64,000 bases of DNA from Hesseltinella vesiculosa (taxonomy: Eukaryota; Mucoromycota; Mucoromycetes; Mucorales; Cunninghamellaceae): positions 62,001 through 126,000 of the forward strand of contig MCGT01000002.1 of the NCBI GenBank assembly GCA_002104935.1. The letters are read 5' to 3'. Positions 27,476 through 54,727 of this stretch are shown here, piece after piece; the stretch's first letter is position 1; every line of letters starts with the position of its first letter. The position numbers were made by a program, and so were the translations under genes. Below the pieces are notes generated by a model. That model searched no databases. It saw only the letters and a program-made list of their open reading frames with translations, and was not told where the DNA came from.

Positions 27476-27615
27476 AAGCAAACTCTTACCCCCCCCCAAC
27501 TCTCTACACCTACTTAAAAATAAAACTTTTTTAAATATAAAATCGTGGTAGTTTATATGGGGATATCGTGTAGAAAAAAAAGGGGGGGTGGGTGGGTTAT
27601 TCATCCATCGACGGT

Positions 27616-28867
27616 TTATTTGGCGACAACAATGATCAACGCCAAAACCGAGCCCACCACAGCAATGATCAGCAAGAAGCAGCACATATTCTTTCGAGCA
27701 TTCTTTTGGTGTCGATTGGCCACTGTCAGCTCCTCGGCAGCCTGGCGTGTGTTTTGGGATATATTCAGCACGTTACTGTAGATGCTCTCTAAACAACATC
27801 AAAGGAAAAATGAGACTTGCATCATTAAAAAGGGACAGAGCACTTACGGATGCCATTGTCTTGTTCATTCACGAGCATTCCCAGATCACGAAAGATTTCA
27901 TTTAATTCTGTGATACCTTGCTCGATGCCTTGGATTTCGCCTTCACGTTCGGAAATGAGCACTTCGTTGTATTCGATCTCATTATCCAGAGCCTGGAGTT
28001 GAATGCGTCGTTGTGTATCGTCTACCAAGGTTGTCTGATCATCTGCCATTTCATCTTCTTCCACACTAATATATATATTTTTTTTAAAAAAAGCAAAGAT
28101 GGGGGAATGTCAATCGTGGATTCCCAAAAGAGGTAGGGTCTCGGTCACAGGGTCTTATTTGCGCACTTACGCCACTTGCGATTGCAACATGGCCGAGGTG
28201 GCCTTGGCCTTGTCGAGAAATTCCCGTTGTTTGGTGGCCGATACGCGTTGGATCTTTTGGAATTCACCTAGAACCTTTTGAAAGTCCTTCGATAATTTCT
28301 GCTGTTCCAGCTTGCGCTGCCTCTGCCAAGGAAAATAGGTCAGCGGTGGTCGCAGTTTTTTTTTTCTTTGCGCCGAGCTTTTTGCTTACTGCGCTGGGCC
28401 CGGTGCCTAGAGGATAAGAGGCCAACTGTTTGATATCTTGCGTAGCATCTCGAATAAGATCTCGGGTCGCTTCGGTGGTATCATGCCTATACATGAGAGT
28501 CGGGCGGTCAATGGTCATATGCTTCTATTGTGAACGAACGTTACAGTTTGTTGCGAACATCTGCCGTATCACGAGGTCCTCCCAGAAAGTTGACGAGACG
28601 CTCTATGCTTGTAATATTGCCGTTGATGTGGAAGACTTGCTGAGATACTTTCTGTACAAGTGACTTGTATTCTTGGTTATCATCATCTAAAACGTACCGA
28701 AAAAAAAATAAAGATGTGTGAAAAAGGTGGGGCAATGGCGTTTTTGCCAAGACCATCGGTTCGCTTGTTTTCTGGCCCCTCCACTTACTGGGCAATTGAA
28801 TGGCGCCTTGTCGTGGTGCTCTTAATGATCCCGAGCCATAACCTTGTTCTAAATCATTAAAGGACAT
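27616..28867 (-). CDS. PEP12: endosomal/vacuolar syntaxin (Pep12/Vam3, Qa-SNARE)
   Basis: Qa-SNARE for fusion at late endosome and vacuole. From 28867 it reads MSFNDLEQGYGSG, an N-terminal Habc domain (VSQQVFHINGNITSIERLVN, then RDLIRDATQDIKQLA), LSKDFQKVLGEFQKIQR, the SNARE motif with the central Gln in ITELNEIFRDLGMLVNEQ, and a C-terminal membrane anchor CCFLLIIAVVGSVLALIIVV ending VAK at 27616. Five introns; the last splits the SNARE helix after DNGI. Vam3 is an alternative name, since the two classes are hard to part by eye. Confidence 0.88.
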
Positions 28868-29284
28868 TGTTTACAAACAGGAAAAAAAAAGTGTGGTGTG
28901 AAAAAAAAAAGTGTGGTGTGAAAAAAAAAAGCTGCGAAAAAAAAAGCGTCTGCAGCCATGATCAGGGAACTTGCCAGCCTGAAGAACCAATCACGTGTCC
29001 CTATTTTTTGATTTGTTGATTCCGTCGCAAGAGAAGACCCCAGGGGTAGCAACCTATCCATAGGAACAACACAGTGGCGGTGATGCGTTTGAAGCAGCTT
29101 TCCCTGTTGAGACATATCTTCGTTATTTAGCAGGCACTGTAAAACAATATGGCCAGGATGGGGGTAGGTTGGGTTCAACAAAGCGGTGTTCTTGTTCTAT
29201 TTTTTTTTCCCTCATTCTCCTTTTTTCCCCTTCATTCCCCTCTCCTCTTTTAATCATTGCACCTGCATCATCATTAGCCATACC
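28868..29284. other. divergent promoter region, PEP12 / GCR1_C gene
   Basis: Two exact tandem copies of an A9-GTGTGGTGTG unit lie at 28881-28921, then a third partial A-run. A T/C-rich stretch (29200-29250) precedes the rightward gene. No gene here. Confidence 0.45.
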
Positions 29285-30151
29285 ATGAAGTCAGATGTAT
29301 TCCATCAACGCTTGTCCAAAATGGAATCGGACGTGAAAAGGCTACTCAAGACACAGAAACGAGAAAGGGCACTGATGAAGCGCACCCACCGACAAAATCA
29401 AAAGATCCTGAGCGCAATGAAAGACATCCAACGACATATGACCCGGCCAGCCAACCACCTACCAGCATTTGCATATCCCCAACATCCTTCTCCAATGGCT
29501 TGCTTCCCATACCCACAATCAGCCATCTATCATCCCTACGCCATCGCCGATGGCCAACAAGTGACTCCCGCGTCTTTACCCGATCGTCCAACCCCCCGAC
29601 CAACGACGCCAAAGCAAGCATCACCTGAAAGACTCTCCTATGCCCCGACAGCAACTCCCGCCCCTGAAACCTACTCCCTTGTCTCCAGCGCTAGCCCGCC
29701 ACCGGTCGAGCTTGCCCAGCACTCCAGGCCATCTACCTCGGCCGGTCAACAAGGCGACGATGCCATCTACGGAATGAACCGGAACGTGATGGATGTCGTC
29801 CAGCTCTGGACAGAGTATGCCAATGGTATCAACGGTGGGCCTTCGATCAAATCACTCGAACGCATCCATGGCTCGAGCTGGAGAAGTACAAAAGCCGTGT
29901 CCCGCTACTTCGCCCGTCGACGACCCCTCTTTACTGCCGTCATCCGTCGTGCCCAAGACGATGGTGTGTCTGAAGAAGCAGCCGCCCGCTCTATGGAAAT
30001 CGAGCGCCTGGATAAAAACATGACCCTGGTCCAGTACTGCACCTTTCTGGGATCTCAGTCCAAAAGGCCCATCGACCTATCCACCAACACTCATGCCCAA
30101 AGCGACACAGAATATGACGAACTGGAGGACACAAAGGCTGAATCCTACTAA
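29285..30151 (+). CDS. GCR1_C-domain putative transcription factor
   Basis: Single-exon protein of about 288 aa. An N-terminal basic coiled-coil (RLSKMESDVKRLLKTQKR) is followed by a Pro/Ser-rich linker and a GCR1_C-type DNA-binding domain at about residues 160-230: VMDVVQLWTEYANGINGGPS, LERIHGSSWR, AVSRYFARRRPLF. In yeast this domain is found in Gcr1, Msn1 and Hot1, regulators of glycolytic and stress genes; here the target is unknown. I chose the ATG at 29285 because upstream in-frame codons (from 29186) translate a pyrimidine-rich leader into Phe/Pro runs. Confidence 0.78.
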   Translation: MKSDVFHQRLSKMESDVKRLLKTQKRERALMKRTHRQNQKILSAMKDIQRHMTRPANHLPAFAYPQHPSPMACFPYPQSAIYHPYAIADGQQVTPASLPDRPTPRPTTPKQASPERLSYAPTATPAPETYSLVSSASPPPVELAQHSRPSTSAGQQGDDAIYGMNRNVMDVVQLWTEYANGINGGPSIKSLERIHGSSWRSTKAVSRYFARRRPLFTAVIRRAQDDGVSEEAAARSMEIERLDKNMTLVQYCTFLGSQSKRPIDLSTNTHAQSDTEYDELEDTKAESY

Positions 30152-30356
30152 TCTCGATCTTCCCCTTTTCATTTTTTTTTTCTTTGTTCCCTGCTCACTT
30201 CTTTGCTGACATGCCTGCACACAGCTGCAATAATAAAATTTGTCCCTGACCCTTTTGCAGGAAATCTGGCCTGAGTTCCAAACTGACCAAAGCAGGTGGC
30301 TGGGCTTTTTTTTTTTTTTTTTTTCTTTCTTTTCCTTACTCTTCTTCTTTACTAAC

Positions 30357-31569
30357 ATGCCAAAGGTTCCTGTCTTGCCATCCGATATCAAGAATAAGCA
30401 AAAGCGTGAAAACCTCTATCATAAACTCAAGGCCGAAAAGGCCAAGAAGAAGCTGGAGCGCCGTAAACAACTTGCCAAGGATGAAGCCAAGAATCCTGAA
30501 TTGAAAGAGGTAACAAGCTGCCACGCCGAGCATCGATCTTATGTTATGTCATTATAGAAACGTTTACGAGAAAATGTGCCAAGGACATTGGAAAACACCC
30601 GTGAACATGACGATACCATGGTTGATGCCGAGGACGAGGAAGTGGCCGAGGACATTGCTAGCGATGAACTTGCCAGCTACTTTTCTGGCAAGACCCCCAA
30701 GATCGTGGTCACCACCAGCAAAAAATGTACAAAGGTAACATCAGAGTTGAAGATGCATCATCCGATCCTCACCCCTCCTTTTTTTTTTTTTTTTTTTTTT
30801 TTTGTTATAGGTGACGTACGACTTTTGTGCAGAGTTGATCTCCATGATGCCCAATGCCCAGTTTGAAAAACGAGGTGCCAAACACGAGCTACGTCAAATC
30901 ATCAAAATTGCCAACGAACAAGAATTCACGGATCTGATCGTTGTCAATGAAGATCACAAGCAGCCAAGTAAGCAAAGTGAAAAAGAGACGCTTCACGGCA
31001 ACCTCATGTTGACATGTTGCTTCTAGACGGCATCACTTTGATCCATTTGCCTGAAGGACCTTCCGCCTATTTCAAGTTATCCAATTTTATTCCTGCCAGC
31101 CGGATCACCGTAAGTTTTTGAAGAACATGCTGGTGAAAGGAACGAAGCACTCAGTTTCCTCGATAGGATCATGGTGCCGTTACTGCGCATTTCCCCGAAA
31201 TCATCCTCAACAACTTCAACACACGGTTGGGTCACACCATCGGCCGCATGTTCCAAGCACTCTTCCCTCAAGTGCCTGAATTCCAGGGCCGTCAAGCCAT
31301 TACTTTCCACAACCAACGTGATTTCATCTTTGTGCGACGACACCGTAAGCCTTTTGTCTTGTGTGTCATGCCTGCCAATCTCACCCCTTCTCGTTTTGCT
31401 ATTAGGATATGTGTTTCGAGATACTGACCGCGTTGGATTGCAAGAACTGGGCCCCAAATTCACATTGAAGCTCAAGTGGCTGCAAAAGGGCGTGTATGAC
31501 CGCAATGGCGAATATGAATGGTTGTTCAAGCCCGAACTGGAAACAAGCCGAAGGCGCTTCTTCTTGTAA
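30357..31569 (+). CDS. RPF1: ribosome biogenesis factor Rpf1 (Brix domain)
   Basis: Nucleolar Brix-family protein needed for 27S pre-rRNA processing and 60S assembly. It begins [20 protein letters not shown] with a basic coiled-coil ([20 protein letters not shown]); the Brix core is [42 protein letters not shown], the sigma70-like stretch [22 protein letters not shown], and [17 protein letters not shown]. It ends with [20 protein letters not shown] and SRRRFFL. Introns near 30509-30557, 30735-30810, 30967-31025, 31110-31167 and 31347-31407 all keep frame. A 24-nt T-run sits in the second intron. Confidence 0.93.
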
Positions 31570-31873
31570 ATTAACACTCTCTTCTCATTCATTTTATTCT
31601 CCACCATCATTCTGTAGAACGCTTCATATCTCTCCCTCTTCTTCTTTTTTTTTTTGCATCTGATGAAATAAACCATGGCTACTGAAAAATGATTCCCAAC
31701 GACGACATGGCGTCCTTGCTATGACTGGATGGACAAGAGGCGGTGTTTTAACCTTGGTTCTATGATCTCAAGTGTTAGGCGCCTTGAAACATCTGAGAGG
31801 GTTCCAGGCATGAGCTGCTATGTGTGGTGGATGGTCGGCCATGGTCGGCCATGGTGGCTACGAGATGCGCTAT
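31570..31873. other. convergent 3' region, RPF1 / BET2
   Basis: Shared 3' flanks. A small triplication of GGCCATGGT(CG) lies at about 31830-31857. No gene. Confidence 0.4.
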
Positions 31874-33049
31874 TTATTTAAGAGAATATTTTGGTTCCAG
31901 GCCAATCCGTTCAATGACCTCCGCTGACATACAATACACAGGATCAACGCGTTTCAGTCCTTCATAGCCTAGCAGCGAAAGCCCTGCCACACCGAACACT
32001 GTATGGAACACGTCCACCATGTCGCCCGGTCGATCAGCAATGCCGCCTAGATCAGGATCCTGTTCAACCAAGAGAAGAAGTTACAAATCAGCCGCATACG
32101 ACTCCTCTCCCCTCTGAGCATGGCTCCCTACCTGGGCGGACAGGATAAATGAGATCAGTTTCTCCTTGTCGATCCAGCTAACCCTGCCCAAGATGGAGAG
32201 GGATGAGAGCACCCACCACGAGTAGCAGACCTAAGTTTCCATAAAAAGACAGGGTGAGCCATGGAGGGAGGTGGGAAAAGAAGGTCACTTGCATCTTCTA
32301 ATTTTTCAGGGCGACCGTTCAAGCCGCCGTTTTTCAGTTGGCGTTCGCAGAGCCACCAGGCCATCAGATCGGTATCGACATAGTGAAGGCCGTCGACAAT
32401 GGCCAGGAAGCCTAGGCAGCAGTAGGCCTGACCAGCATGTGACTCGCTACCTGGCCGATTGCCAAACCCGCCGTCGTAGTTCTTGCACTGGAGAATCCAT
32501 TCCACCGCCTTGGGTATATCGATTGCATCCAGCCGCTTCAGCAAGGACAGCGCAGCCACGGCCACGAACGAGAAACGAGAATCCACCTCACCCCATACGT
32601 CCCCAGTGAATGACCCGTCTGTGTTTTGTCGATTGGCAATATCTAGCAGGCGAAAAAAAAAAAAAAAACGGTGAAAAAGAGAGTGACCAACTGACCAGAC
32701 ACCTACAGGTAATAACTTTGTCAATGTCGATGGCGTTGATGGCATCCAGAGTGATGAGGATTTGAATAGACGACAAGGTATAAAGCAAATGTGAATCATG
32801 ATGGAGATGACCACCGAATCCGCCGTCTTCGCGTTGTAGGCTGACGACATAATCAATGACCTCTTGGCGAGGCAGGGCATCTCGATGGTGCATCAGGTCC
32901 AAAGCTGTCAGGCCCCAGTACAGGCCACTGACTCGTAGGTGCTCGGTCAGCCAGTACTCCAGATCTTCTTTTCGATGATCTAGTGACTGAATATACTTGA
33001 CATGTAAATCGGTGAGCAGGTGATCTGCTACTTTCTCCTCTGTAGCCAT
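31874..33049 (-). CDS. BET2: Rab geranylgeranyltransferase beta subunit
   Basis: Beta subunit of type-II protein geranylgeranyltransferase, which with Bet4 and the escort protein prenylates Rab GTPases. From 33049: [34 protein letters not shown], then prenyltransferase repeats ([104 protein letters not shown]). Zinc ligands are visible: Asp-Cys in the VCYSWW region and the His in DVFHT. Ends ..GLEPKYSLK at 31874. Introns near 32646-32710, 32232-32290 and 32062-32130. The ATG lies only 93 bp from the divergent LARP7-like start. Confidence 0.93.
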
Positions 33050-33142
33050 TTTATTAAAAAAAAAAAAATAGAGTGAGAAAAAAAGTGAGCGGTGGAGTTC
33101 TTTTTTCTTTTTCATTTTGCTTACCCGATTTAAAACGTTGCC

Positions 33143-34564
33143 ATGGTGGATCTCCAAGGATTGGCTAATGGCTTGACGAAATGCTTTAGCGATTTCTATA
33201 TTCAATCCAATGATACAATGAAACAGTTTATTCTGAAAGCAGAGCAAGGATGTGAGTTGCGATCTATGTTTTTATTGCTCGATTGCTCACCGATTTTTTT
33301 TTTTACGTTGTCATACACCAGGCGTTTCTTTTGACGATATCATGACCATTGCGCCAATCAGTAAATGGAATCCAACGGTCAACGACATTGAAATGGCCGT
33401 GCAAGAGCATTGCGAGAACACGCTGCTGGTAAGGATCTGCGGCTCGGAGTTGCTGCTGAATGTGCTTCTACTTTCAACATAGGCGACCCAGACAGGTGTC
33501 CAGCGGATCAAGCCCTTTATTGATCAACAAACGATCGAACAGGACGACTGGTCCATCCTTGTGGTAAGAAGAACGATGCGAATAGAGAGGGAACGTGCCG
33601 GAGATACATTCATTGTCTATGCCAAATAGGAAGGTCTGCCAAAAAAATATGACACAAAGGACAGGATCCAAGACCTATTTACCCAGCATGTGGGCCCAGT
33701 CGCGTTTCTTCGGTTTCCACCCGACCGCCAAGGCAAAGAGTTCTTCCAGGGTCTTTGTTTTATCGAGTTCCAAGACAAGCAATACGTGCAGCAGGCGATC
33801 GACATGTTCGATTGCTTTGACCTCGACACACTCTCCTTTCAACACAATCCGGCCAGTCCGATCCAGCATCCTTTGCGGGTGATGTCAAAGTACGATTTTC
33901 AAGAAGTAGCCCTGTAAGCTGACTCTGCCATTCTTTTCGTCATAGACATGACTGGAATGCCATGAAAGAAGCGTATTTGAAATTACAGGAACAAGAGGCG
34001 GATTTTATCAAAAGCCTTTGGAACGACCACATCCGAGCGACCAACAAGCGTCAAACCGAGGAGGACAAGCAGCACGCTACGCCAGCCAAGAAAACCAAAC
34101 GCGAGGAGATCCTGCAAGAGGAAGCCGCGGCCCAGCCGGCGTACCCGGAGCATGTGGTTGTCACTGTCGAGCATATCCATCCAAAGACCAGCAAAACCGC
34201 ACTCAAAGCCATTCTGGAACAGTCTGGCGCATCGGTGGCCTTTGTCAAATACAAAAAGGGACTGGTCCAGGTAAAGCGACACTGTTTCTGTGCGATGGAT
34301 CTCATCCTTTTTTTTTTTTTTTTGGGGGGGGGGGGACGTGTGTTTCAACCTTAGACCAATGTACGGATGACGACACCTGAAGACACGGACAAGTTAGTGA
34401 CGTATTTCCAAACACATCATTTGGTGCAAGAAACTGCACAAGATACCAAAGGATCGGCCAAGGACGCTGCCTCGTTTGAAACCCTGTCGGTGCGGGCCAT
34501 ACAAGGACAAGAAGAAAAGATTTATTGGGAGTCAGAGTCATGGCATCCCGCAGATAAAAAATAA
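33143..34564 (+). CDS. LARP7: LARP7/Pof8-like La-related RNA-binding protein
   Basis: La-related protein; fungal members (Pof8) bind telomerase RNA and U6, animal LARP7 binds 7SK. The layout fits: a La motif (LTKCFSDFYIQSNDTMKQFI, VSFDDIMTIAPISKWN, EMAVQEHCENTLL), an RRM (ILVEGLPKKYDTKDRIQDLF, GKEFFQGLCFIEFQDK), a charged linker with KKTKREE, and a C-terminal xRRM-type domain (VVVTVEHIHPKTSKTALKAI, AFVKYKKGLVQ, KIYWESESW). Introns near 33252-33321, 33429-33482, 33564-33629, 33914-33947 and 34271-34353; some are short. It converges on HACL1 with 9 bp between the stop codons. A telomerase role is inference from family. Confidence 0.8.
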
Positions 34565-34573
34565 ATAGAGTTT

Positions 34574-36531
34574 CTATAATTTTGGTTTCTGTGCTGCGTT
34601 CATCCAGCCAAAGGACTAGCAAAGAGGAAGAAGAGGATGAGGTTCGTTTTGGGAAGAGTGTGCAGGACTTACCAGCTTCTTTCGACCGCCAGGGGCAATG
34701 AGGACGTTGATGACACACGTTTCCTTTGGTTGCGCCAGGCTTTCTTGGAGGGCTTTGGCGAGCTCGATGCGGTTGCGGACCAGCCAGCCTTTGCCACCGC
34801 AAGCCTGGGCAATCATGTCGTAGCGGGTTTCGGGAGAGAGCGAGGTGGCAGGCAGGGTTTGGTTGTGGCGGGAGCTCTCGTAATCCTGGTCATCCAAGCC
34901 ATGGTAAATGCCATTGTTGTTGATGACAATAATCAGCAGAGGCAGCTGGGAGCGGATGGCTGTTTCTAATTCCATGGCACTATCAAAGCCGAAGCTGGTG
35001 AGCTGCGCCAATTCGTTGTCACATATAAAAAAAAAGAAAAAAAAAAGAAAAAACTGACCTGAAGCCAAAGGCTGAATCTCCAACAATGGATACCACGCGG
35101 TGATCGGGATAGTACAATTGGGCTAGAGAGATTAGAATGAGTAAAAGGCGGGTGGTAAGCCCTCGTCGATTCTTACCGGCGATGGCGTAGCCCATGCCGA
35201 CGCCCATGGTGGCGCCAGTCCCGGCATCAAGGCGTTGGCGAGGGTGCTGGACGTCAAAGTAAGAGCGACCGATGTCCATGGTGTTGGCGCCCTCGCTGAC
35301 GTAGACGATCCCTTGGCGGGGCAAGATGTTCTTGATGACGGTGAAAGCGGTGTGGTAGTTCAAGATGGCGTGATCGTCGCCTTGTTGGCCGAGCGTCAGG
35401 GTCTTTGCCATGTTGGCCTTGGCTTTGGCTTGGAGGCCCTGGCGGTAGGCGGGATCGAGGTTGGTGGTGGTGGCGTGGGTGAGGAGCTGTTGCAGGGTCA
35501 GGCGGAGGTCGCCGGCTAAGGCAAGGGTAAGGGCGCCATTGTTGCCTAGCTCCTCATAGTGAACATCGAGGTGGATATATTTGACATTGTTTGACCAGCG
35601 AGGCGAGGCACCATAGTGGAGGATCCAATTGAGTCGGGCGCCGACGAGGACAACGACGTCGGCTTCTTTGAGGGCTTTGGATCTTGCAGGCGATACGCAG
35701 AGGTCGTGTTCATCTGGCAGCACACCCTTGCCCATAGGGGTTGGTAAGAATGGAACGCCTAGCTTGTCGACCCATTGGCGCAATTCGTTCTCGGCGCGAG
35801 CATAAGCAGCACTAATGACATATTAAAAAAAAAAGAGTGAGGTGGGCGTCCCAAGGGACGATGATGCTTTACCCTTTGCCGATGACGATGAGAGGGCGGC
35901 GGGCTTGACGGAGCCAGGAGGCGGCTTGGATGATAGCTTGAGGATCGGCCTGGGCTTTGGGAGCAAGGGTGGTCTGGGTGGGTAACAGAGGGACGATGGC
36001 AGCTGGGTTTTGGATGGCGTATTGGATATAATCAGCAGGGAGGTCGACGTAGGTGGGGCCGGGACGGCCGGCGGCGGCGGTGCGAAGCGCCTTCTCAATG
36101 ACAAACGGGATCTTGTCGACGCTGGCAGGACGTGCGGCGTATTTGCAATAAGGACGGCAGACCTGGACTTGGTCGAGTTCTTGAAAGGCGCCCATGTCGA
36201 TTTGGTCGGTGTCGCATGAGCCGGCCAAGAGGACCAATGGCCAACAGTTGAGTTGGGCGTTGAGCAGACCGGCAAGGCCATGGACGACGCCTGGGCCGCC
36301 GACGGTCAGACACACGCCTGGCTGGCCACTCAAGTAGCCATGGACGGATGCCGCGTAGGCGGCGGATTGTTCGTTTCGGAATGCGATAAATCGAATGCCT
36401 TGGGCTTGACAAGCATCCGCTATTTCTACGACAGGGATGCCGACAATACCAAACAAGACAGTGACGCCAAGATGATGCAGAGTGCGAGCAATCAATTCGG
36501 CGCCTGATGCTTTCGGTTGTTGCGTGGCCAT
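34574..36531 (-). CDS. HACL1: 2-hydroxyacyl-CoA lyase, ThDP-dependent, peroxisomal
   Basis: Thiamine-diphosphate enzyme cleaving 2-hydroxyacyl-CoA to formyl-CoA and an aldehyde (peroxisomal alpha-oxidation); oxalyl-CoA decarboxylase is the close alternative. From 36531: the catalytic Glu in FIAFRNEQSAAYAA, VCLTVGGPGVVHGLAGL, PTYVDLPADYI; a central domain with VPFLPTPMGKGVLPDEHD and LVGARLNWILHYG; and the ThDP motif GDSAFGFSAMELET ... NNNGIYHGLDD. A 42-nt last exon (34574-34615) adds a tail ending AQKPKL, a PTS1-like tripeptide; without this splice the frame runs to a non-signal end. Introns near 35812-35870, 35125-35175, 34998-35058 and 34616-34672. Confidence 0.87.
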
Positions 36532-36761
36532 GGAAAAAAAAAAAAGTTAAGAACAAAAAGAAAAAAATGGCTGACATGCGACATTTCGTAATTTTCCTTC
36601 GGGATTCCGCCGAGGCCAATGACGCCATTCTCCCAGGGAAGGTTATCCTGAAATGGACAATGGTGGTCCAAATGTTTATTGATATGATGAAATGAGTGGG
36701 GGGTATGTTGCATAGGTAATGAGGCATAAAACATGGGTCATGAAAAAGGGGGTGGTCTAAG

Positions 36762-37632
36762 TTAGCGCAAGGGGGAGGGGTCCAGTAGATGAAAAGCGGT
36801 GGCATCGGCTTTGGGCATGAAACGGCTGACAAAGGACATAGGTGAGGAGGGATAAAGCCAGGCATGGGAGGACGATGGGGTGGAAAGACATCTGGAGGAA
36901 GCCGAGGATACAGAGGAGGAGGAGGAGGAGGAGGACAAGGAGGAATGAATGACGGCAGTCAAGTGTCGCCAAGGTGGCCTGTCCAACGAAGAGGGTTTGT
37001 CGTGTTTCTGGCAAATGTTTTTCGGCGATTGCCAAAAAGGATCAGGTGCGACGGGTGAGTCGAATTTTAGTCGTTTCAACTGATCCACCACTTGATCAAA
37101 TTCATCCTTTGAAACCGTCAATTGAAAATCCTACAGCGATCGCCCAAAAAAACCCAATGAGGATGGAAAAGAGGCGCGCCTTGTTTTTTTTTTTTTTTAC
37201 CAAAAGCGTCAAGAGTTGGCGTTCCATGAGGTTAATGTCATGTAAATGAAACAAATCATTGGCGAATGAAACCCAATGGATGTTTTTAGGCGACGTATCA
37301 TGGAACAGTTTTGTGCTGAGGATGAGGGTGGCTAAAAAGATGCGTTGCGGGGCGGTCGACATGCCCATGATAAGTTGACGACGATGGCCGAGGCGATTGG
37401 CTAATCTTTCGAGCAAAATCATGACGATGAGCAGCGTACCGGTTTGGGTTTTGGATCGGCGGATGAGCTGTTGAATAAACGTTGGTAAGGGAAGAATGAG
37501 ATATTCGTCGGGGTCGGGCACAGTGTGAGGCGTGATCATATGAGCCACTTTATCAGCAATGACGTCCAAGAGTTCTGGCTGTAATGAGCCATACCATGAT
37601 TTTTCTAGACGAGTCATCGACAAAGGCCACAT
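36762..37632 (-). CDS. Pcl/Pho80-family cyclin
   Basis: Cyclin of the PCL class that would bind a Pho85-type CDK. Starting at 37632 (MWPLSMTRLEKSWYG), the cyclin fold runs ELLDVIADKVAHMITPHTVP, LPTFIQQLIRRSKTQTGTLL, VMILLERLANRL, RIFLATLILSTKLFHDTSPK, NIHWVSFANDLFHLHDINLM, ERQLLTLL, then across one intron (about 37134-37198) DFQLTVSKDEFDQVVDQLKR. A Ser-rich tail with eight consecutive Ser ends at 36762. The longer upstream-open frame is low-complexity translation of A-runs, so the ATG at 37632 is preferred. Confidence 0.8.
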
Positions 37633-38029
37633 CACAAGGTTTGTCAGAAAAAGGTTAAGGGTGTCAAAAGAGAAAGAAAGAAAGAAAAAAGGCGGGCAAT
37701 CTTTATTAATGCTGAAAAAGGGATTGGGTAGAGTAGGGGTTGTTGCGTGTAACTGCAACAAACCAAAAAAATAAAAATGGGGGGGGGGAGTTTGGCGCTT
37801 AAAAAAACAAAAAAAAAAACAAAAGGGTATGGTATCAAATTGAAGTTTATAAATATAAGTTGGGATGGAGAACAATGACAACGAAAAAGAGAATGAAAAG
37901 AAAAAAAAAAAAAAAGAGGGAGAGAACATGCGTATCTTTTTCTCGAGGTTTTTTTTTTGCATTTTTTTTTTTTTACTATTGGGAGAAAGATCAACGCCAT
38001 TGAAAGAATGGGAGAGGAGAAAAAGCGTT
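37633..38029. other. intergenic, A-rich, between cyclin start and WC-2-like gene end
   Basis: Multiple A-runs and a G-run (about 37780-37788). Presumed cyclin promoter; no gene seen. Confidence 0.4.
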
Positions 38030-38966
38030 TCAGTTGCCATTGAAATCCTTCTTTTTGTTTTTTTTGGACCATCGCAAACCACAAGCGTTACAGAGTCTAA
38101 ATAGAAAAAAGGAGGCTCGTTTAAACACAGCATTTAAAAAAATAGGGGACACCTTACGTTTTGGGACCATGTGGACCACGACGCCATTCTGGTGAAGTGG
38201 TTGTACCACAATCCATACAAACATACTGATGTAACATGTCTTTGACATGTTTTCTCTAAGAGGAAAAAGAAGGTGAGACGAGGCTGGACAGGCAAGAGCG
38301 TACCTTTGGGTTGATGGCTGTGTGCGGGTTGGAAGGAGAGACCATGGAGGTGGAGAGATGAGCAGAGGAATAATCCATGGTATAGGCCGAGGCGGCAGGA
38401 GGGGCAGGCGATTGTAGCGAGCTGCCTTTAAAGCAGCCAACATACAGGGTATTTTTTGACCAATAGTCGGATTGCTTGCACGTCAGAGGGAGCGTCATGC
38501 CATTTTTTTTATAAAAATGAATGACGTCGGAAGATGGTTGGGGTGGATGCTGCAGAAAAGCTGTCAGGGACCTGCCAAGCAACTCTAGGGGGGTATATCC
38601 GGTCAACAAAAAGAAGTTATCAGAGCACTTTTGAATGACGGATTGGTGGGTCAGCAAGTAGTAATAGAAAAGATCGGGAGGTTGGCTGAGGTCTTTTCTA
38701 GAAGTAGAGCGAGGAGGCGAAGGGTGTTGGGCAGGTGGATGACTGGTTTGAGGATAAAAAGGGGGTGTGTATTGGGATTGGAAAGAGCAGTCCAAAGGTG
38801 CTGGGCGCTCGCTGTTCATGCCGGTCATCAGGAAGCTTTCCGACGGGACACTGTACAACTGTGCAGGTGGTTGTGTGGTTCGGCTTGGTTGTTGTCGTTG
38901 CTCCATTGAGATTTCCGAAAAGCTCGAAAGGTCTTCATTTAGAATATAATAAGGGTCGTTCATCAT
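38030..38966 (-). CDS. wc-2: White-collar-2-type PAS/GATA zinc-finger factor
   Basis: Partner of WC-1-type blue-light receptors in fungal photoresponse (Mucorales carry several wc-2/madB-like genes). From 38966: [18 protein letters not shown], a Pro/Gln-rich stretch, a PAS domain ([54 protein letters not shown]), a Ser-rich linker, [33 protein letters not shown], and [16 protein letters not shown]. The zinc finger CX2C-X18-CX2C is complete across the last intron. About 250 aa, short for WC-2. Introns near 38256-38304 and 38097-38158. No LOV cysteine motif, as expected for WC-2. Confidence 0.85.
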
Positions 38967-46733: not shown

Positions 46734-48704
46734 TTTATTTAACCCTATTTTTTATTGCATTCCCCTTTCATTCCCTTGTTTGTATTTTCTTCTTCTTCCC
46801 TGTACATCACTCAAATTAAATCATGGGCCTCCATTCCCTCTTTTTCTTTTTTTCCCTGATGCCTTGCATGCTTTGGACATTAAATATCAAGGGGGGGACC
46901 ACTCTTCAAAGTGCATAGAGACCAGCAACCCAATCAGCCATTTGCTATTTGAAACTCATTTTTCATGCTGTCCTTTCTCAAAAACCGTTTCTCCACAGGA
47001 CGAGGTCCCATCTCGTGGAAAATTTTCCCTTATTTGGTTGTTTTCTTTGATCTGACTTGGTTTTTGCCAAGACATCACACAAACAAAAAAACCTGGTCCC
47101 CGCTCTCTTGCATCCTCTCTGACCCACTTACTCGGGTGATCGAGCAGGTTGGCAACCCACCAAACAGAGAAAATAGTTGGCTGCTGCTTATCTAAAACAC
47201 TCCTTTCTTTTTTTGCCATTCTGCCAGCCTCAGCCATGTTCCTTGCTGTTGGTCCTCCAAATGCTTTCTTCCAATGAATCATGTAGCTTACTTTTGATTT
47301 TTTCCCAGGCCAAGATGCGGAGGGAGGGAGGGAATGCGCAACTCCACAGTGGGTATGTGACACCTAGTTTTTTTTGCTGAGCATCATCCCATGGTCGATC
47401 AATAGATCAAACTAAGACAACTATGATCAGAGAATCTGGAGTCCCTCCTTTTTTTTTTTTTTTGCAGAATCGACACCTTGCGAGACAGATACTGTCGGAT
47501 GCATGCATGAGAATTTCATGCAACTTGCGCGCATGGCTACAGCGAAAAAAAATGGCTGTTGTGTGAACATCGAGATCCTTCACTTGCCACAGCCCATTTC
47601 TGCCAAGCAAAAACCTGCTCAAGTGCCATTCCATAGTTAGAAGTCCCCCCCCCAAAAAAAAATAGCCTGCCAGAATGTGTTTCGGCGCAAGGATCCGCTT
47701 CCTATTGAATGCTGGATCGGCGCTGAAAGAAAAATACCGACGGCACCAGGTGCCAAGGGATTGGCTTTTATCCCCCTTGACGACTGATTCCGTTGACTCT
47801 TGTTCTGCACATACAGAGACGTACTTGCAGATATGATCCAGCTTATACTACCAGTAATTGTGTGCAATAGCTGGGCTCAATCCGTGGAGGTTGGATTTTT
47901 TCCGATTTCTGGTCAGATCGCCTGAGACCGTCAGGCGATCTGGTCAAAAAATCCTCCAAGTTCAAGAAAAATTTCAACGTCCAATCTTTTGCATGTGACC
48001 GGTACTTGATGAGGTGGGATGGACGTCACAATAAAAAGCTTTGTATGGGACGTGGTACCAAGCTAGAACAACCAGCCATTTTGCAAGGAAGGCCCATCTT
48101 TTTTTAGATGAGCCTAGTTCTTCACCGTCTTATCCAAGTGCCGTATAATTTTAACTGTCCATATTTCCCATTAAGTACCAATTCCAAGTACAGTTTGGTG
48201 TGAATCATATCATCTGCCATCCTTTCCCACTATGTACCAAAAACGCAACGGCTGGAGCTGGCCACCCTCCCAGCACACGCTGCGCTTGACCAGAATTGAA
48301 TCCCAGCCGCAGTAAACAGGTCAACCAGTAACCATGGTGGGTAAGCCTAGGCGCACTTTTTTTCTTTTGTTTGTTTGTTTTTTTCAATGAAAACTTGGAA
48401 TCTCTGCTGACAACCGGTAAATGGCCTAGTCTAAATTGCAATGAGGATGCTTGGTGCAAGGTAATCTATTGTTGGCATACTTGTTGTATGCTAATCCTCG
48501 GAAAAGAGTACAAAAAAAAGAGCAGCAACTCACTCGTTTTAACACTTTTGTTTGTTTACTTCAAGAAGTTATCATCTGGGCCCTGATGGACAATGTTACG
48601 TTATGAATGTGTTGTTGCCTGATATCAAGTAAGTCTGACGCATGAAAAAAGAAGCAAGGCTTGCATAATTTTTTTTCAACTTCTTTTCAAAAGGCTACCG
48701 TGAT
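46734..48704. other. 2-kb stretch without a supported gene
   Basis: Scattered ORFs below 140 aa with no recognisable domain. It holds the hairpin described separately at 47884-47958. No tRNA or rRNA was recognised by eye. Confidence 0.4.
47884..47958. repeat. long imperfect inverted repeat with perfect 10-bp core
   Basis: Core stem GATCGCCTGA (47916-47925), loop GACCG, then TCAGGCGATC (47931-47940). The outer arms continue as TGGAGG..GGATTTTTT..TGGTCA on the left and TGGTCAAAAAATCCTCCA on the right (imperfect on the left). It could be a foldback/MITE relic or a cruciform site; no terminator role is expected in this eukaryote. Confidence 0.6.
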
Positions 48705-49110
48705 GTCTCGAGTCCACATGCATGTTGCAGGCTGTCCTAGCAAGGAACTTGCCTTCTGGTGGCGCGCCCGTACATGACGGATCAATAGATCTCTGATTGT
48801 GCCCGTGTTTGCCATAGGAATTTAATTATCTACGGATAGTTAGCTGACTGCTTCATGATGTGGTGGTGCCTTGGTGTGGTGGTGCCTTGGTGTGGCGGTG
48901 CCTTGGTGTCTCGAGTCCACATGCATGTTGCAGACTGTCCTAGCAAGGAACTTGCCTTCTGGTGGCGCGCCCGTACATGACGGATCAATAGATCTCTGAT
49001 TGTGCCCGTGTTTGCCATAGGAATTTAATTATCTACGGATAGTTAGCTGACTGCTTCATGATGTGGTGGTGCCTTGGTGTGGTGGTGCCTTGGTGTGGTG
49101 GTGCCTTGGT
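48705..49110. repeat. 203-bp tandem duplication (2 copies)
   Basis: Unit starting GTCTCGAGTCCACATGCATG at 48705 recurs at 48908, nearly identical through GGAATTTAATTATCTACGG and the first minisatellite units. Offset is 203 bp. The first copy ends in three units of the 16-bp minisatellite; the second leads into the expanded array. Confidence 0.85.
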
Positions 49111-49488
49111 GTGGTGGTGCCTTGGTGTGGTGGTGCCTTGGTGTGGTGGTGCCTTGGTGTGGTGGTGCCTTGGTGTGGTGGTGCCTTGGTGTGGTGGTGC
49201 CTTGGTGTGGTGGTGCCTTGGTGTGGTGGTGCCTTGGTGTGGTGGTGCCTTGGTGTGGTGGTGCCTTGGTGTGGTGGTGCCTTGGTGTGGTGGTGCCTTG
49301 GTGTGGTGGTGCCTTGGTGTGGTGGTGCCTTGGTGTGGTGGTGCCTTGGTGTGGTGGTGCCTTGGTGTGGTGGTGCCTTGGTGTGGTGGTGCCTTGCTAT
49401 GAAGGTGCCTTGCTATGAAGGTGCCTTGCTATGAAGGTGCCTTGGTGTGGTGGTGCCTTGCTATGAAGGTGCCTTGGTGTGGTTGCCT
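49064..49488. repeat. 16-bp minisatellite, about 26 units
   Basis: Unit TGTGGTGGTGCCTTGG repeated about 21 times almost perfectly, then variant units CTATGAAGGTGCCTTG mixed in to 49488. Because 16 is not a multiple of 3 and the unit has no stop, all three plus frames are open and translate the same 16-residue cycle; these ORFs are not genes. Confidence 0.9.
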
Positions 49489-49675
49489 CTTTGCGTCATC
49501 CTGCATCGCTAAAGGATGGCGGGTGGTGGTGGGCCTTCCTCTCTCCTCTTGGAGTCTGTTGATTGGTGTGCCAGTCCTTTTCATTGGCACACTTTTTTTT
49601 TATTCACAATAAAAGATGTTTACTTGCATCTCGTTCTTTACTGAATTTTATGACCGAAAAAATAAGCACATTTAA

Positions 49676-49942
49676 CTACCCAACGCTTTAGAATGAATGG
49701 ATCAATGTCAAAATTTTCACGGATGCAGAAAAATCATAAATGAAGGTCATCATTCTATGCTGGTTCAACGTGGCCGACGCTGTAGGCACTGGGCTACTGC
49801 CAGCCTTTGCCAACCTTGCCCGCCCACCTGCCCGATACTGATTCCCTCATATCACCTTCAATATTGCTTTTTTTTTTTCATGCGCTTTGGTTCTATGGAT
49901 AGCTGTGAAGGTTAGCTTTCTAACTGTGCCATTGGAAGAGCG
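49676..49942 (+). repeat. island direct repeat, left copy (267 bp)
   Basis: From CTACCCAACGCTTTAGAATG to CATTGGAAGAGCG; matches 52857-53099 almost base for base except a 20-odd-bp insertion (about 49718-49745) and a longer T-run. The copies are 3181 bp apart in the same direction and bracket the satellite and the nuclease-like gene. Confidence 0.85.
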
Positions 49943-50393
49943 TAAAGATATGCACCATGGATGCTAAGCGTGTTTCGAGCAATCGACTAGAATTAATGGA
50001 CCCCATTCTGCATCACCTTTTCAAACGGTCAAACGTGGATCTGATGCGGTAATGGCAATTTCGGAAAGGAAGAAGCGCTAAGGCTCCGGTTTTTTTTTTT
50101 TTATAGGGGAGATAACAAATTGTTGGCAGGCAAGACCGTTGACAGATAATGAACGCCGTGCCTCGGGGTCAAATGTGGACGCCAAGTTGACCTCATCCTC
50201 AGGTTTGAAAATTGCGATATTTCTGGACCACCTCTTGTCACCAGCTACGGTCACTTCGAGAGCGATCGAGTTAAATTAGCTTGTACAGTAATATGAAAAA
50301 GATGTTGAAAACCATCACGTACAAAAAAAAACTGCCCTAGTTCAACGATGTCAATCAAAGACGAGGAGGGGATGGAATGCAGGAGAAGCGGAT
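49943..50393. other. island spacer, nothing recognised
   Basis: Between the left direct repeat and the satellite. No supported ORF or domain. Confidence 0.4.
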
Positions 50394-50970
50394 GAGACCG
50401 GTTACCATTTTCACGCCGTCTCATTGGTTTAGCAAAGAGACCGGTTACCATTTTCACGCCGTCTCATTGGTTTAACAAAGAGACCGGTTACCATTTTCAC
50501 GCTGTCTCATTGGTTTAACAAAGAGACAAATGGTAACCCGGTTACCATTTTCACGCCGTCTCATTGGTTTAACAAAGAGACAAATGGTAACCCGGTTACC
50601 ATTTTCACGCCGTCTCATTGGTTTAACAAAGAGACCGGTTACCATTTTCACGCTGTCTCATTGGTTTAACAAAGAGACAAATGGTAACCCGGTTACCATT
50701 TTCACGCCGTCTCATTGGTTTAACAAAGAGACCGGTTACCATTTTCACGCTGTCTCATTGGTTTAACAAAGAGACAAATGGTAACCCGGTTACCATTTTC
50801 ACGCCGTCTCATTGGTTTAACAAAGAGACCGGTTACCATTTTCACGCTGTCTCATTGGTTTAACAAAGAGACAAATGGTAACCCGGTTACCATTTTCACG
50901 CCGTCTCATTGGTTTAACAAAGAGACAAATGGTAACCCGGTTACCAACCTGGTTACCAACCTGGTTACCA
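50394..50970. repeat. 43/54-bp satellite array with palindrome
   Basis: Units start GAGACCGGTTACC or GAGACAAATGGTAACCCG and end GTCTCATTGGTTTAACAAA. Starts at 50394, 50437, 50480, 50523, 50577, 50631, 50674, 50728, 50771, 50825, 50868 and 50922, i.e. spacings of 43,43,43,54,54,43,54,43,54,43,54. The 54-bp form carries ATGGTAACC-C-GGTTACCAT, a perfect 9-bp inverted repeat; unit ends give GTCTC...GAGAC. The array finishes with three ACCTGGTT-type partial copies, 34 bp before the next gene's ATG. Confidence 0.9.
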
Positions 50971-51003
50971 AAACATCTTTTTTTCCCAAAGCCAAAAAAA
51001 AAA

Positions 51004-52005
51004 ATGAGCCCGCTCTCTTTGCCACCAGGGTCTGATCTGATGGCAAAGAACATAACAAGAAACCAGACTGTTATCAACATAATAACTTCAGCTTTGGTTA
51101 AAAGCGATCAAGATTACATCCCTGCTGAAAGTTCCTGGCCCAATGGTTCTCGATCAGATTTGGTCTTGGAGCCAAAATCTTCCTGCCTGGGGTTGCCACC
51201 TATTATTGTGGAGTTCCAGCATTCGGTCAACAAAGTTTTCATGAAACGTGCCACCGAATATGCCTTGCAAGCTTTCAAGAGATACGACATCGATCCCATT
51301 GTTTTCATTGTTTGCATGAACACTGTGCTGGCCGAGGTCGAAGAATTGACGCAACCGGCAGATATCCTTGGATGTCAATCATACCCTTGTCACGGTTGGG
51401 CTGCTGATTGCCTCATAATGTCAAAAAAAAGTCTCTCTTCCCTGACAGCAGCTGAAAAATCTAATCCTTTTTCAGCCTTTGGTCTGTTTTTAACTCAATC
51501 CACTTCTGTTACCGACCTTGTACGTGATGATCCCACCATGGAATATTTGAAAACCCTCGCGCTAGACCACTATGCCTCTGTGATCGGAAATCAGGTTCAT
51601 ATTGTTGACTTTGTGAAGGACATGTTGCATACACAAAATAAGCAGTATGAACATCTGTTGACCCTAGCCCCATCACAATCTTTGCAAGTGGCCATTCGTA
51701 ATGCCCAGACCAAGCAGCAAGAGTTTGAAAATCACTTGTTTGGGTTGGACTCTGGAAACTCAACCCCGCTCTCTCCAGCTATTCCCAGTGCTTCATCTTC
51801 CAGTGCACCTTCCACCTCCTCAACAGCAGAATACCAAAGAAATATGTCATTTATATCAGAATTCAAGGAAGCCAGAATCAGAGAAGGCAAGCGCCGTATG
51901 AATTGGCGAGCATGTTTTGACGAAGGACGCAAAAATGGACTGCTACTGTCTTACAAAAATGCCAACAGTTTGAAGCACCAATTCCAGAAGTATGAAAAAT
52001 CTTGA
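51004..52005 (+). CDS. PD-(D/E)XK nuclease-like protein, transposon-associated?
   Basis: Intronless, 333 aa if started at ATG 51004 (51040 is also possible); the longer frame from 50875 runs into the satellite and is unlikely to be the real start. Residues about 50-90 show a PD-(D/E)XK pattern: Asp52 in SRSDLVLEP, then Glu70-x-Gln72 in PPIIVEFQHSVNKVFMKRAT, followed by YALQAFKRYDIDPIVFIVCM. Similar multi-copy proteins occur, from memory, in Mucoromycota. The C-terminus is Ser-rich, then basic (EARIREGKRRMNWRA). It lies inside the 3.2-kb direct-repeat-bracketed unit. Function unknown; nuclease activity is inferred from the motif only. Confidence 0.6.
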   Translation: MSPLSLPPGSDLMAKNITRNQTVINIITSALVKSDQDYIPAESSWPNGSRSDLVLEPKSSCLGLPPIIVEFQHSVNKVFMKRATEYALQAFKRYDIDPIVFIVCMNTVLAEVEELTQPADILGCQSYPCHGWAADCLIMSKKSLSSLTAAEKSNPFSAFGLFLTQSTSVTDLVRDDPTMEYLKTLALDHYASVIGNQVHIVDFVKDMLHTQNKQYEHLLTLAPSQSLQVAIRNAQTKQQEFENHLFGLDSGNSTPLSPAIPSASSSSAPSTSSTAEYQRNMSFISEFKEARIREGKRRMNWRACFDEGRKNGLLLSYKNANSLKHQFQKYEKS

Positions 52006-52194
52006 AACAAGTAGTTTTTTTTTTTTGTTTTACCTTTTCCTCCATCCTTCAAAGCATACCTAGTAAAAATATAAAGAAATTGCTCTACCTATGATTGCCC
52101 AGATGGATAGAAAGGGACCTTTGTCAGCCATCAGTATTTCATTGTTGCAAAAAAAAAATTCTTTGAAAAAATTGCCACCCCTTTCGTTTCCACA
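52006..52194. other. 3' flank of the nuclease-like gene
   Basis: T-run then AT-rich sequence; no gene. Confidence 0.35.
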
Positions 52195-52410
52195 GAGTCA
52201 GTGATAACCTCCGTCACCTCCTGGTCTTGGCCTCCGCTTATCCCTGCACTCCATCCCTTTCGTCTTCCCTCGTCATTGCCGCCATTTGGTTAGCCCACTG
52301 GCGTCATACCTTTGACGAAGTCCCTTTCATCGTCATCAACGTCCTAGCCACCGTCAACAGATCCATCCAGCTTTTGCACGATGAAGCCCGCCTTCTTCCC
52401 CACTCATCTC
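52195..52410 (+). pseudogene. retroelement-like coding fragment (possible LINE ORF2 tail)
   Basis: Open frame reading RHLLVLASAYPCTPSLSSSL, VIAAIWLAHWRHTFDEVPFI, LATVNRSIQLLHDE, ending in an A-run at 52410. The IWxxHWRxxFDxVPF pattern resembles, from memory, the end of Tad-like LINE reverse-transcriptase ORFs in Mucorales. Only about 70 codons remain, and the A-run could be the element's poly-A tail. Confidence 0.35.
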
Positions 52411-52856
52411 AAAAAAAAAAAAAAAATTGGTCTCCAAGACATGCGTGAAAATCGTCAAATTTTGAAAAAAGCAATTGCGGGGTCTCACAACAGGTTCAGT
52501 GTTGCGGGGCGATCCCTTAAACGTAATACTGACACCTTTAACGGTTAAATAAATAATTGTTAAGAAAGATAATGAATAAGAAGAGGGACAAAGAAAACCT
52601 ACCGAAAACGTAGTCGGTGTAAATTTGGAGGAAATAAAAAAAAGAAAAAAAAGAGACAAGAGCAAACAAAGCCAAAATTGGTGGGAGGGGGAGCAGCACT
52701 GAAAGCCTACCCCAGAATATGCTGCCCAGGGTTGAAAAAACATCCATACATATTTAGACACACCAAGAAAAGTGTAATTTTTAAACAAATACTTACCTTC
52801 AAAGGGAATGAAACTAATGATGAGCGATATATTTTGCTTTATTTGGGGAGTGGATT
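52411..52856. other. island spacer, AT-rich
   Basis: Minus-strand ORFs here are Phe/Leu-rich translations without a domain. No gene supported. Confidence 0.35.
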
Positions 52857-53099
52857 CTACCCAACGCTTTAGAATGAATGGATCAACGTCAAAATTTTGA
52901 CAAAGTCATCATTCTATGCTGGTTCAACGTGGCCGACGCTGTAGGCACTGGGCTACTGCCAGCCTTTGCCAACCTTGCCCGCCCACCTGCCCGATACTGA
53001 TTCCCTCATATCACCTTCAATATTGCTCCTTTTTTCATGCGCTTTGGTTCTATGGATAGCTGTGAAGGTTAGCTTTCTAACGGTGCCATTGGAAGAGCG
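52857..53099 (+). repeat. island direct repeat, right copy (243 bp)
   Basis: Partner of 49676-49942; same direction; closes the 3.2-kb unit. Confidence 0.85.
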
Positions 53100-53394
53100 G
53101 AAAAAATGATATTGGGATTTTTCCGGGCCAAGAGAAGAGACACTCTCTGGAAAAAAAGAAAAAAAAAAAAAAAAAAAAAGAGGAAATTGTTAGAGGTTGG
53201 GCTTGGACGCAGCTTACGGCAGGCAAGTTTGGGCAGGAGAAAACTTGGTCTAGCTCTGGAGGAAGTGATCGAGGTGGGTTGTGATTTTTAACACTGGTCA
53301 ATTCTCACCAAGGGCGATCAGCCTGAGCAGTTTGGAGGTGGAGGTCCCTTTTTTTTGGATGTCGGACATTGTAATTTTTTTTTTTTTTTTTTTC

Positions 53395-53580
53395 GTTTTG
53401 CCTTTTTTTTTTGGCCGGGGAAAAGGAGGTCCCAAAAACTACTTGATACCAAATTGGCTGGGCAACCTTCATAGATTGACTTGATTTTTTCACTATCCAT
53501 ATGTTGCATTAAAACCTGAACCCATGCAAAATTTAATCTTGATTCATTCATTCAAAACTGCAATAGAGTAATACCTTTTT
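53395..53580 (+). repeat. dispersed repeat, copy C (diverged)
   Basis: Shares TTGGCTGGGCAACCTTCATA, TTGACTTGATTTTTTCACTA and TGCAAAATTTAATC-type blocks with copies A and B, in the same order but with lower identity. Confidence 0.5.
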
Positions 53581-53599
53581 TTGCAAAAAGCAAAGGGTC

Positions 53600-53720
53600 T
53601 CCCTGGCAAAAATGGCCGATTTTTCATTTATTTTAGCTGGGCCATCGGACGAGTCAGAGCGAAACGGATCAAATGTTGGCTGGGAGACCAACACCGATCA
53701 AGATGATATATTCAATACGA
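53600..53720 (+). repeat. dispersed repeat, copy D (5' part)
   Basis: TCCCTGGCAAAAATGGCCGA, TTTTTCATTTATTTTAGCTG, AGAGCGAAACGGATCAAATG, TTGGCTGGGAGACCAACACC: the 5' blocks of the family, truncated after CACCGATCAAGATG. Confidence 0.6.
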
Positions 53721-53911
53721 GGATGATGCACGTATGCAGACCTTGTCCCTGCCGCCGCCCTTTGCCACCCTGATGAACTGAGTCGATAAATGATGCCGTT
53801 TTCTGCGATTCCACCTCCTCATGGTCCATGATGGCCACTGGTTGCCCATGGGCCAATCAAGATGCGCTATTCAGAGGAGTTGGTCCATGAGGTCCTATTT
53901 TTTTTTTTTTT

Positions 53912-54290
53912 TTGCAAAATGAACTGCGAGATTACAGAGGGACAGGCAATCTGCATACTACAGTTGAATACGAAAGAAAACAGTCAAAGGATAGTCGACA
54001 TGAAAGGGTTAGATATCACATACTTTGGACCCTGAAGGATGAATACGTGAATGGTTTTGTCCTGGATATTACAGAACATTTGCCGCGATGCCGCGCTTAT
54101 ATTTACAGTCTTAAGGAACAAGGCTACTCAATATTTGGCTACGCAAGAAAATCGCCTGGATCAGCAAGTGAAGCGAGCCGCATACTGTTACTCCAAAAAA
54201 TGGTCGATCGATTAAGCAACACCTTGGTGGTCGACAAAGTATTTGTTTCCTTGTCGTCATCAGCTAGTGAATCTTTATCAGCTCACGATG
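53912..54290 (+). pseudogene. recombinase-like ORF (possible IS607-type TnpA relic)
   Basis: Open to 54385, but protein-like mainly to about 54290: RYHILWTLKDEYVNGFVLDI, then YSIFGYARKSPGSASEASRI, LLLQKMVDRLSNTLVVDKVF, VSLSSSASES. GYARKS recalls the GYARVS motif with the catalytic Ser of serine recombinases (IS607 TnpA class). It lacks the usual downstream recombinase motifs, so it is at best an eroded or divergent relative. Directly upstream of a TnpB-like zinc ribbon, which is the IS607 gene order. Confidence 0.4.
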
Positions 54291-54369
54291 CAACGAATGA
54301 CAAGATGGCCCTGGCACCATTTGTTGTGTCTACAAGACAACGACCTCCACGAAATTGGAATCAAGCACC

Positions 54370-54635
54370 GTCAAATGCACCATGATTACCACCATCGCAA
54401 CAGCCACTATTCCCCATGCCAGCCAAGGCAAAAGTTGCATGCCGTGTTAGCTTGTGAAAACTGTCACACGGTATGGCACCGCGACCAGAATGCTGCCCGC
54501 AATATCCTCGCCATCGCCCTTCACAAGATCATGGTTGGCCGCAGACCGCGGGCATTTACAAGAGCTGCCGAAAACGAGCCTCGCCAACGGAACCGGTCGA
54601 TTCCACCCTCAAGTCCCCCACAGTGGTCAACGTGA
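54370..54635 (+). pseudogene. TnpB/Fanzor C-terminal zinc-ribbon fragment
   Basis: Third plus frame reads PCQPRQKLHAVLACENCHTV then WHRDQNAARNILAIALHKIM and RPRAFTRAAENEPRQR, stop 54635. C-x2-C followed by HRDxNAARNI is the zinc-ribbon plus RuvC-III signature of IS605/IS607 TnpB and eukaryotic Fanzor nucleases. RuvC-I and RuvC-II parts are absent upstream, so this copy cannot be a working nuclease. Frame differs from the preceding recombinase-like ORF. Confidence 0.6.
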
Positions 54636-54640
54636 AATTG

Positions 54641-54727
54641 ATCACACAGGGAGTTCCTTCTTGTGTGATACCTCTACCTGTACATAGCAAGTTGGCTCTG
54701 GGGTTATCCCCTCCCTGTATCACAAAT
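54641..54727. repeat. hairpin cluster just after the TnpB-like fragment
   Basis: ATCACACA (54641-54648) pairs with TGTGTGAT (54662-54669); GGGG-TTAT-CCCC at 54700-54711; TGTGATAC (54664-54671) can also pair with GTATCACA (54717-54724). Possible element end or guide-RNA-scaffold relic. Confidence 0.45.

What the first reader, a model, noticed from the sequence alone, without database searches (positions are those of the whole stretch)
49676..53099. 3.2-kb unit bracketed by direct repeats, carrying a satellite and a nuclease-like gene
Two near-identical 243-267-bp direct repeats enclose a 43/54-bp palindromic satellite, a PD-(D/E)XK-like ORF immediately after it, and a LINE-like scrap. The repeats do not start TG or end CA and are not linked to a known retroelement ORF. 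Architecture (nuclease gene next to a palindrome array, whole unit bracketed) could be an undescribed mobile or selfish element, or a segment duplicated by unequal exchange. Cargo and borders are seen directly; mobility is inference.
Basis: partly seen in the sequence, partly recalled or inferred. Interest (0 to 1): 0.75.

Follow-up and report, generated by a model that had tools for sequence, protein, structure and literature searches.

The report
Fungal nuclease gene with repeat array
In the mould Hesseltinella, a nuclease-like gene with an array of short repeats in front of it is a broken-off piece of a larger, mobile-looking gene family, while the "brackets" around it are just part of an ordinary dispersed repeat.

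Summary
In detail: direct repeats at 49676-49946 and 52857-53103, a GGTTACC array (50398-50971) and a nuclease-like ORF (51004-52005), in Hesseltinella vesiculosa. But the brackets are no element borders. They are an internal segment of a dispersed repeat R; 5 of 5 R copies read (of 13 other places listed) hold it once, without insert. The insert is nested: element X, and inside it a fragment U (array + ORF) joined with microhomology; U's 94% copy on C85 lies between long inverted arms.

The nuclease/array pairing is wider than this unit. The ORF family (58 match rows, Rpn-like core) has arrays directly 5' of the ORF at 6 of 18 independent loci, against 0 of 30 kinase genes. One array-flanked element with this ORF sits at two unrelated sites, and a solo array at a third. 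Against uniqueness: 3 of 8 DDE_3 transposase genes here have arrays too.

Best reading: foldback-like mobile elements whose arrays are binding sites of their own Rpn-like nuclease; the window copy is a captured fragment. Spread of the family is supported; the nuclease's role is inferred.

The parts
48698..49103 (+). 203-bp tandem pair, left part of dispersed repeat R
   Evidence: shared with R copies L004-L008
49062..49483 (+). 16-bp minisatellite inside repeat R
   Evidence: shared with R copies
49943..50344 (+). left part of element X; 93% to C16:418859-419281
50345..52408 (+). fragment U (array, ORF, tail); aligned part 50538-52408 is 94% to C85:729131-730984; 9-bp microhomology at the right junction
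50398..50971 (+). GGTTACC array, 43/54-bp units
   Evidence: this unit found elsewhere only at C85 plus one single site with a mismatch at C1
51004..52005 (+). ORF, 333 aa, Rpn-like nuclease core plus three-helix C-terminus (annotated DM01DRAFT_1331359 with other exon borders)
51157..51219 (+). codons of the presumed active site: D52, E70, Q72
   Evidence: kept in 18, 18 and 19 of 19 aligned members; in register with RpnA D63, E82, Q84
51805..52002 (+). C-terminal three-helix domain, presumed DNA-binding
   Evidence: model pLDDT 86.7; DNA binding is inference
52172..52408 (+). 'LINE-like scrap': dispersed sequence, runs into the inverted arm in the C85 copy; no RT domain found
52400..52856 (+). 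right part of element X; first 213 bp 96% to C16:419321-419527 (contig end)
52857..53103 (+). right copy of the R segment (right bracket), lacking 22 bp that the left copy and five other R copies have
53104..53607 (+). continuation of repeat R
   Evidence: joined flanks align through in 5 of 5 R copies; in L007 the alignment stops about 300 bp earlier

Best explanation
Two layers. (1) The window unit is a nested patchwork, not an element with borders: repeat R was interrupted, with a ~250-bp R segment left on both sides; the insert is element X, and X holds a fragment U (array + nuclease gene) joined by microhomology. End joining or template switching during break repair is the likely route (inferred from the junctions). 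(2) U comes from a family of mobile or once-mobile genes in this fungus that encode an Rpn-like PD-(D/E)XK nuclease with a helical C-terminus and often carry arrays of a short motif. The arrays probably are iterated binding sites for the element's own protein, which would cut at or near an array and let repair move the unit, much as foldback-type transposons use repeated sites in their ends. Shown: a conserved family; arrays 5' of the ORF at 6 of 18 independent loci; one array-flanked element at two unrelated sites; a solo array at a third. Inferred: binding, cutting, and that this protein rather than another transposase moves the unit.
For: Empty R sites 5 of 5; X without U at C16; microhomology. 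Family. Fold and active site. Arrays 6 of 18 versus 0 of 30 kinase genes, Fisher p 0.0015. Array-flanked element at C31 and C34, 97.8% over 2.4 kb with unrelated flanks, the intact nuclease frame being its longest frame by far; motif orientation 5'/3' is 15 forward / 5 inverse + 4 forward at C31 and 5 forward / 13 inverse at C34. Solo array with 6 motifs. Related TTACCGAT motif at C31, C34, C48 and C30, one clade. dN/dS below 1 in 5 of 5 close pairs (0.26-0.88), on few changes.
Against: 3 of 8 DDE_3 transposase genes have arrays too, so the pairing is not special to this family (Fisher 6/18 vs 3/8 p = 1). 12 of 18 independent loci show no strong 5' array. C40, in the TTACCGAT clade, uses another motif. 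The 3' array at C31 is of mixed orientation. No target duplication seen. The Rpn match is modest (probability 50.7) and structure hits are middling. DNA binding, cutting and autonomous movement were not tested.
Confidence: 0.55

Rival explanations
1. The elements are moved in trans by a DDE transposase; the nuclease is an accessory or passenger gene and the arrays are that transposase's subterminal sites.
For: DDE_3 genes are abundant (164 matches) and 3 of 8 sampled have arrays 5' of the gene; U itself sits inside long inverted arms of a high-copy repeat at C85.
Against: The C31/C34 unit holds no other long frame. Exact scans for its 13-base motif met only C31, C34, the solo array and one single site, so no DDE element carrying it was found.
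Confidence: 0.25
2. The arrays are autoregulatory operators: the protein binds its own upstream repeats to control its expression, and has nothing to do with movement (for instance a toxin- or defence-like Rpn gene).
For: Arrays lie directly 5' of the ORF at the six positive loci, and between divergent ORFs at C40. Bacterial Rpn proteins are described as toxin-antitoxin/anti-phage systems (PMC10327210, abstract start in the listing).
Against: Arrays also lie 3' of the ORF at C31 and C34, and a solo array stands far from any family member found.
Confidence: 0.1
3. The arrays are ordinary minisatellites that grow near repeats in this genome and mean nothing.
For: Repeat R has its own 16-bp minisatellite; DDE_3 genes have arrays too.
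Against: 0 of 30 kinase upstream regions have one; a related motif recurs in several subfamilies of one clade; arrays flank a unit found at two sites.
Confidence: 0.1

Closest known systems
Rpn / YhgA-like nucleases (PF04754, PF12784; E. coli RpnA-E)
   Same: D...E-x-Q core in register over 92 columns; the authors hold Rpn genes to be possibly eroded mobile elements with the C-terminus perhaps choosing DNA sites (PMC5350276, passages).
   Different: Eukaryotic; below Pfam and NCBIfam cut-offs in the members scanned; long helices and a three-helix C-terminus; motif arrays beside several genes.
Foldback-type transposons (Galileo, Tetris)
   Same: Ends rich in tandem repeats of variable number, inverted on the two sides; repeats can seed satellites and may carry extra transposase sites (PMC3573991, PMC4079207, passages).
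   Different: Encodes an Rpn-like nuclease, not a P-type transposase; no unique terminal sequence or target duplication seen here.
DDE_3 (PF13358) elements of the same genome
   Same: 3 of 8 sampled have arrays 5' of the transposase gene.
   Different: Different enzyme and different array motifs.

Membership tests
Rpn / YhgA-like (PF04754, PF12784) | Match to the curated family models | tested here: not met
   Best E 0.0041 (PF04754) and 0.1 (PF12784), each in 1 of 19 members; TIGR01784 E 0.1 in 1 of 19
Rpn / YhgA-like (PF04754, PF12784) | PD-(D/E)XK core with D...E-x-Q | tested here: met
   hhalign E 1.6e-4, probability 50.7, catalytic register; unrelated control E 0.78; residues kept in 18, 18 and 19 of 19
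Rpn / YhgA-like (PF04754, PF12784) | Solved structures of the same fold | tested here: inconclusive
Rpn / YhgA-like (PF04754, PF12784) | DNA endonuclease activity | not testable with these tools
   needs purified protein
Foldback-type transposon | Inverted, internally repetitive ends on a unit found at several sites | tested here: met
   C31/C34 unit at two sites, with the 3' array at C31 of mixed orientation; not met by the window unit itself
Foldback-type transposon | Target-site duplication | tested here: not met
   None seen by eye at C31, C34 or the solo array; no empty sites available
Foldback-type transposon | Transposase of a known superfamily | tested here: not met
   Only long frame inside is the nuclease-like one
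LTR or other repeat-bracketed element (window unit) | Direct repeats as the ends of a unit present in more than one copy | tested here: not met
   Repeat is internal to R in 5 of 5 copies read; whole unit found once

The most novel reading that the evidence does not exclude
A kind of eukaryotic mobile element that moves with a stand-alone Rpn-like PD-(D/E)XK nuclease instead of a DDE, tyrosine or serine recombinase, using private arrays of its own recognition motif as ends that are cut and re-joined by host repair, with motif and protein diverging together across subfamilies.
Probability: 0.22. Interest if true: 0.85.

Novelty: new variant of a known kind. Interest (0 to 1): 0.52.

Why it matters
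If the nuclease binds and cuts its own array, this would tie the little-understood Rpn-like nucleases to DNA mobility in a eukaryote and show one way in which palindromic satellites grow beside selfish genes. It would also give a set of naturally paired nuclease and motif subfamilies for testing how DNA specificity diverges. The window unit by itself is ordinary: an insertion and repair patchwork.

Tried and rejected

Limits: 28 of the 58 match rows were not read; the 18 independent loci are my collapse of 30 read loci (C12/C85, C40, C2, C25 and C31/C34 copies counted once each). Of 13 other places of the R segment, 5 were read. DNA of other Mucorales could not be read. Pattern scans used each array's own unit, so rarity elsewhere is partly expected. 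Paper searches on Hesseltinella, Mucorales or Mucoromycota with such nucleases or transposons gave no paper on this family; the library is open-licence only.

Full report
What was checked. The window lies at C12:62001-126000 of a 27.05-Mb genome in 85 contigs. Protein matches name the organism Hesseltinella vesiculosa and this ORF as DM01DRAFT_1331359.

The brackets. Besides the window, one search lists 13 places with most of the 271-bp segment (11 from its first base, 2 partial or more diverged) and three more with only its last 94-108 bases. In L004-L008 it lies inside a longer repeat R. I joined window 48600-49946 to 53104-54700 and aligned the join to those five loci: the alignment crosses the junction in 5 of 5 (95.9, 95.1, 94.6, 95.7 and 87.9% identity). 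So R exists without the insert and with one copy of the segment. The two window copies differ by 7 mismatches and 24 gap columns; the right one lacks 22 bp that the left one and all five others have, and the left one has private changes. They may stem from two R copies or from an old duplication. That transposases are not known to leave 250-bp target duplications is my recollection, not a result.

The interior. 49943-50344 matches C16:418859-419281 at 93%, and 52400-52612 matches C16:419321-419527 at 96%; in C16 the two are 39 bp apart. So X exists without U. U matches C85:729131-730984 at 94%, with a 99% identical protein. At U's right junction, window, C85 and C16 share CCACTCATC; at the left the overlap is about one base. 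At C85 the array and ORF lie between inverted arms: inner 646 columns 99.1%, outer 871 columns 74.4%. A 1,500-base piece covering one arm has 81 match rows in the genome, from 40 scored of 794 first-look candidates.

The family and its arrays. One search lists 58 match rows; 30 loci were read. For each I took the most frequent non-simple 8-mer, both strands, in up to 1.5 kb before the match. Counts of 5 or more, coding repeats set aside (L031, L033), occur at the window (20), C85 (10), C48 (25), six of eight C40 loci (20-50), C21 (15), C31 (15), C34 (5) and C1 (12): 6 of 18 independent loci. Controls: 0 of 113 stretches of the window with 48.6-53.2 kb left out; with nothing left out, 6 of 125 stretches, all overlapping that region; kinase genes 0 of 30 upstream and 1 of 30 downstream (a count of 5). 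The control that speaks against uniqueness: of 8 DDE_3 transposase upstream regions, two have strong arrays (19 and 41) and one a weak one (5). Arrays go with mobile-element genes here, not with this family alone.

The clearest mobile unit. C31 and C34 share 2.4 kb at 97.8%. Upstream motifs are all forward (15 and 5); downstream ones are 13 inverse at C34 and 5 inverse with 4 forward at C31. The flanks do not match each other. The C31 copy ends about 100 bp before a start codon of a neighbouring frame, and the C34 copy starts about as far from one on the other strand; whether those frames are genes was not tested. A solo array with six motifs and no ORF lies at C12:376949-377089. No clear target duplication was seen.

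Motifs and tree. TTACCGAT is rare in background (0.034 and 0.009 per kb) but occurs exactly 15, 5, 4 and 3 times in the 1.3 kb before the C31, C34, C48 and C30 genes, and 13 times with at most one mismatch before C1. C31, C34, C48 and C30 fall in one clade (97/94), with C1 outside it; C40 in that clade uses CGCCAAT, and C34b and C45 there have no array, which speaks against a simple rule. The window type lies in another clade and uses GTTACC. Scans with one unit from each of six array types hit only beside family members, apart from the solo array and single sites at C1:256176 and C3:56126.

Selection. dN/dS was 0.28 (window/C85, 6 changes), 0.26 (C31/C34, 2 changes), 0.68, 0.56 and 0.88 in five close pairs; distant pairs are saturated. 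This is weak evidence for constraint.

Literature. Rpn paper PMC5350276 (passages): catalytic residues tested by mutation, little sequence specificity in vitro, possibly eroded mobile elements. Galileo PMC3573991 and Tetris PMC4079207 (passages): tandem repeats within inverted ends, held to carry extra transposase sites and able to seed satellites. The searches named under Tried and rejected gave no paper on this family.

Verdict. The reported unit is a patchwork left by insertion and repair. Its core is a fragment of a real family in which an Rpn-like nuclease gene, often with its own motif array, has spread in this genome. Binding, cutting and self-mobility are inference.

Noticed in passing
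window 53912-54635: Remnant of a Fanzor/TnpB-type gene: 54243-54632 matches PF07282 (Cas12f1-like TNB) at E 1.9e-5, just under its cut-off. The frame before it (53912-54385) reminded me of an IS607-type recombinase, by recollection only; no Pfam support.
   Followed up: partly
L080 (C85:764611 to at least 765700) and L078 (C6:565724-565992): DDE_3 transposase genes with long arrays of 20-bp and 12-28-bp units directly upstream.
   Followed up: partly
L014-L019, L021, L022 (C40:1-8541 and 26327-38680): Cluster of eight nearly identical nuclease ORFs in convergent and divergent pairs, with palindrome-rich CGCCAAT arrays between divergent ORFs; the two blocks are 95-98% copies of each other.
   Followed up: partly
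L002 (C85:727654-729211 and 731020-732474): Long inverted arms of a high-copy dispersed repeat; inner part 99% identical, outer part 74%, which suggests recent conversion or fold-back copying of the inner part.
   Followed up: partly
L045 (C12:376949-377089): Solo TTACCGAT array between host frames, with no nuclease ORF nearby.
   Followed up: partly
C1:938868/943256, C27:123992/128556, C18:180438/188455 (G000, not fetched): DDE_3 matches as inverted pairs about 4-8 kb apart with identical scores, perhaps transposase genes within long inverted repeats.
   Followed up: no
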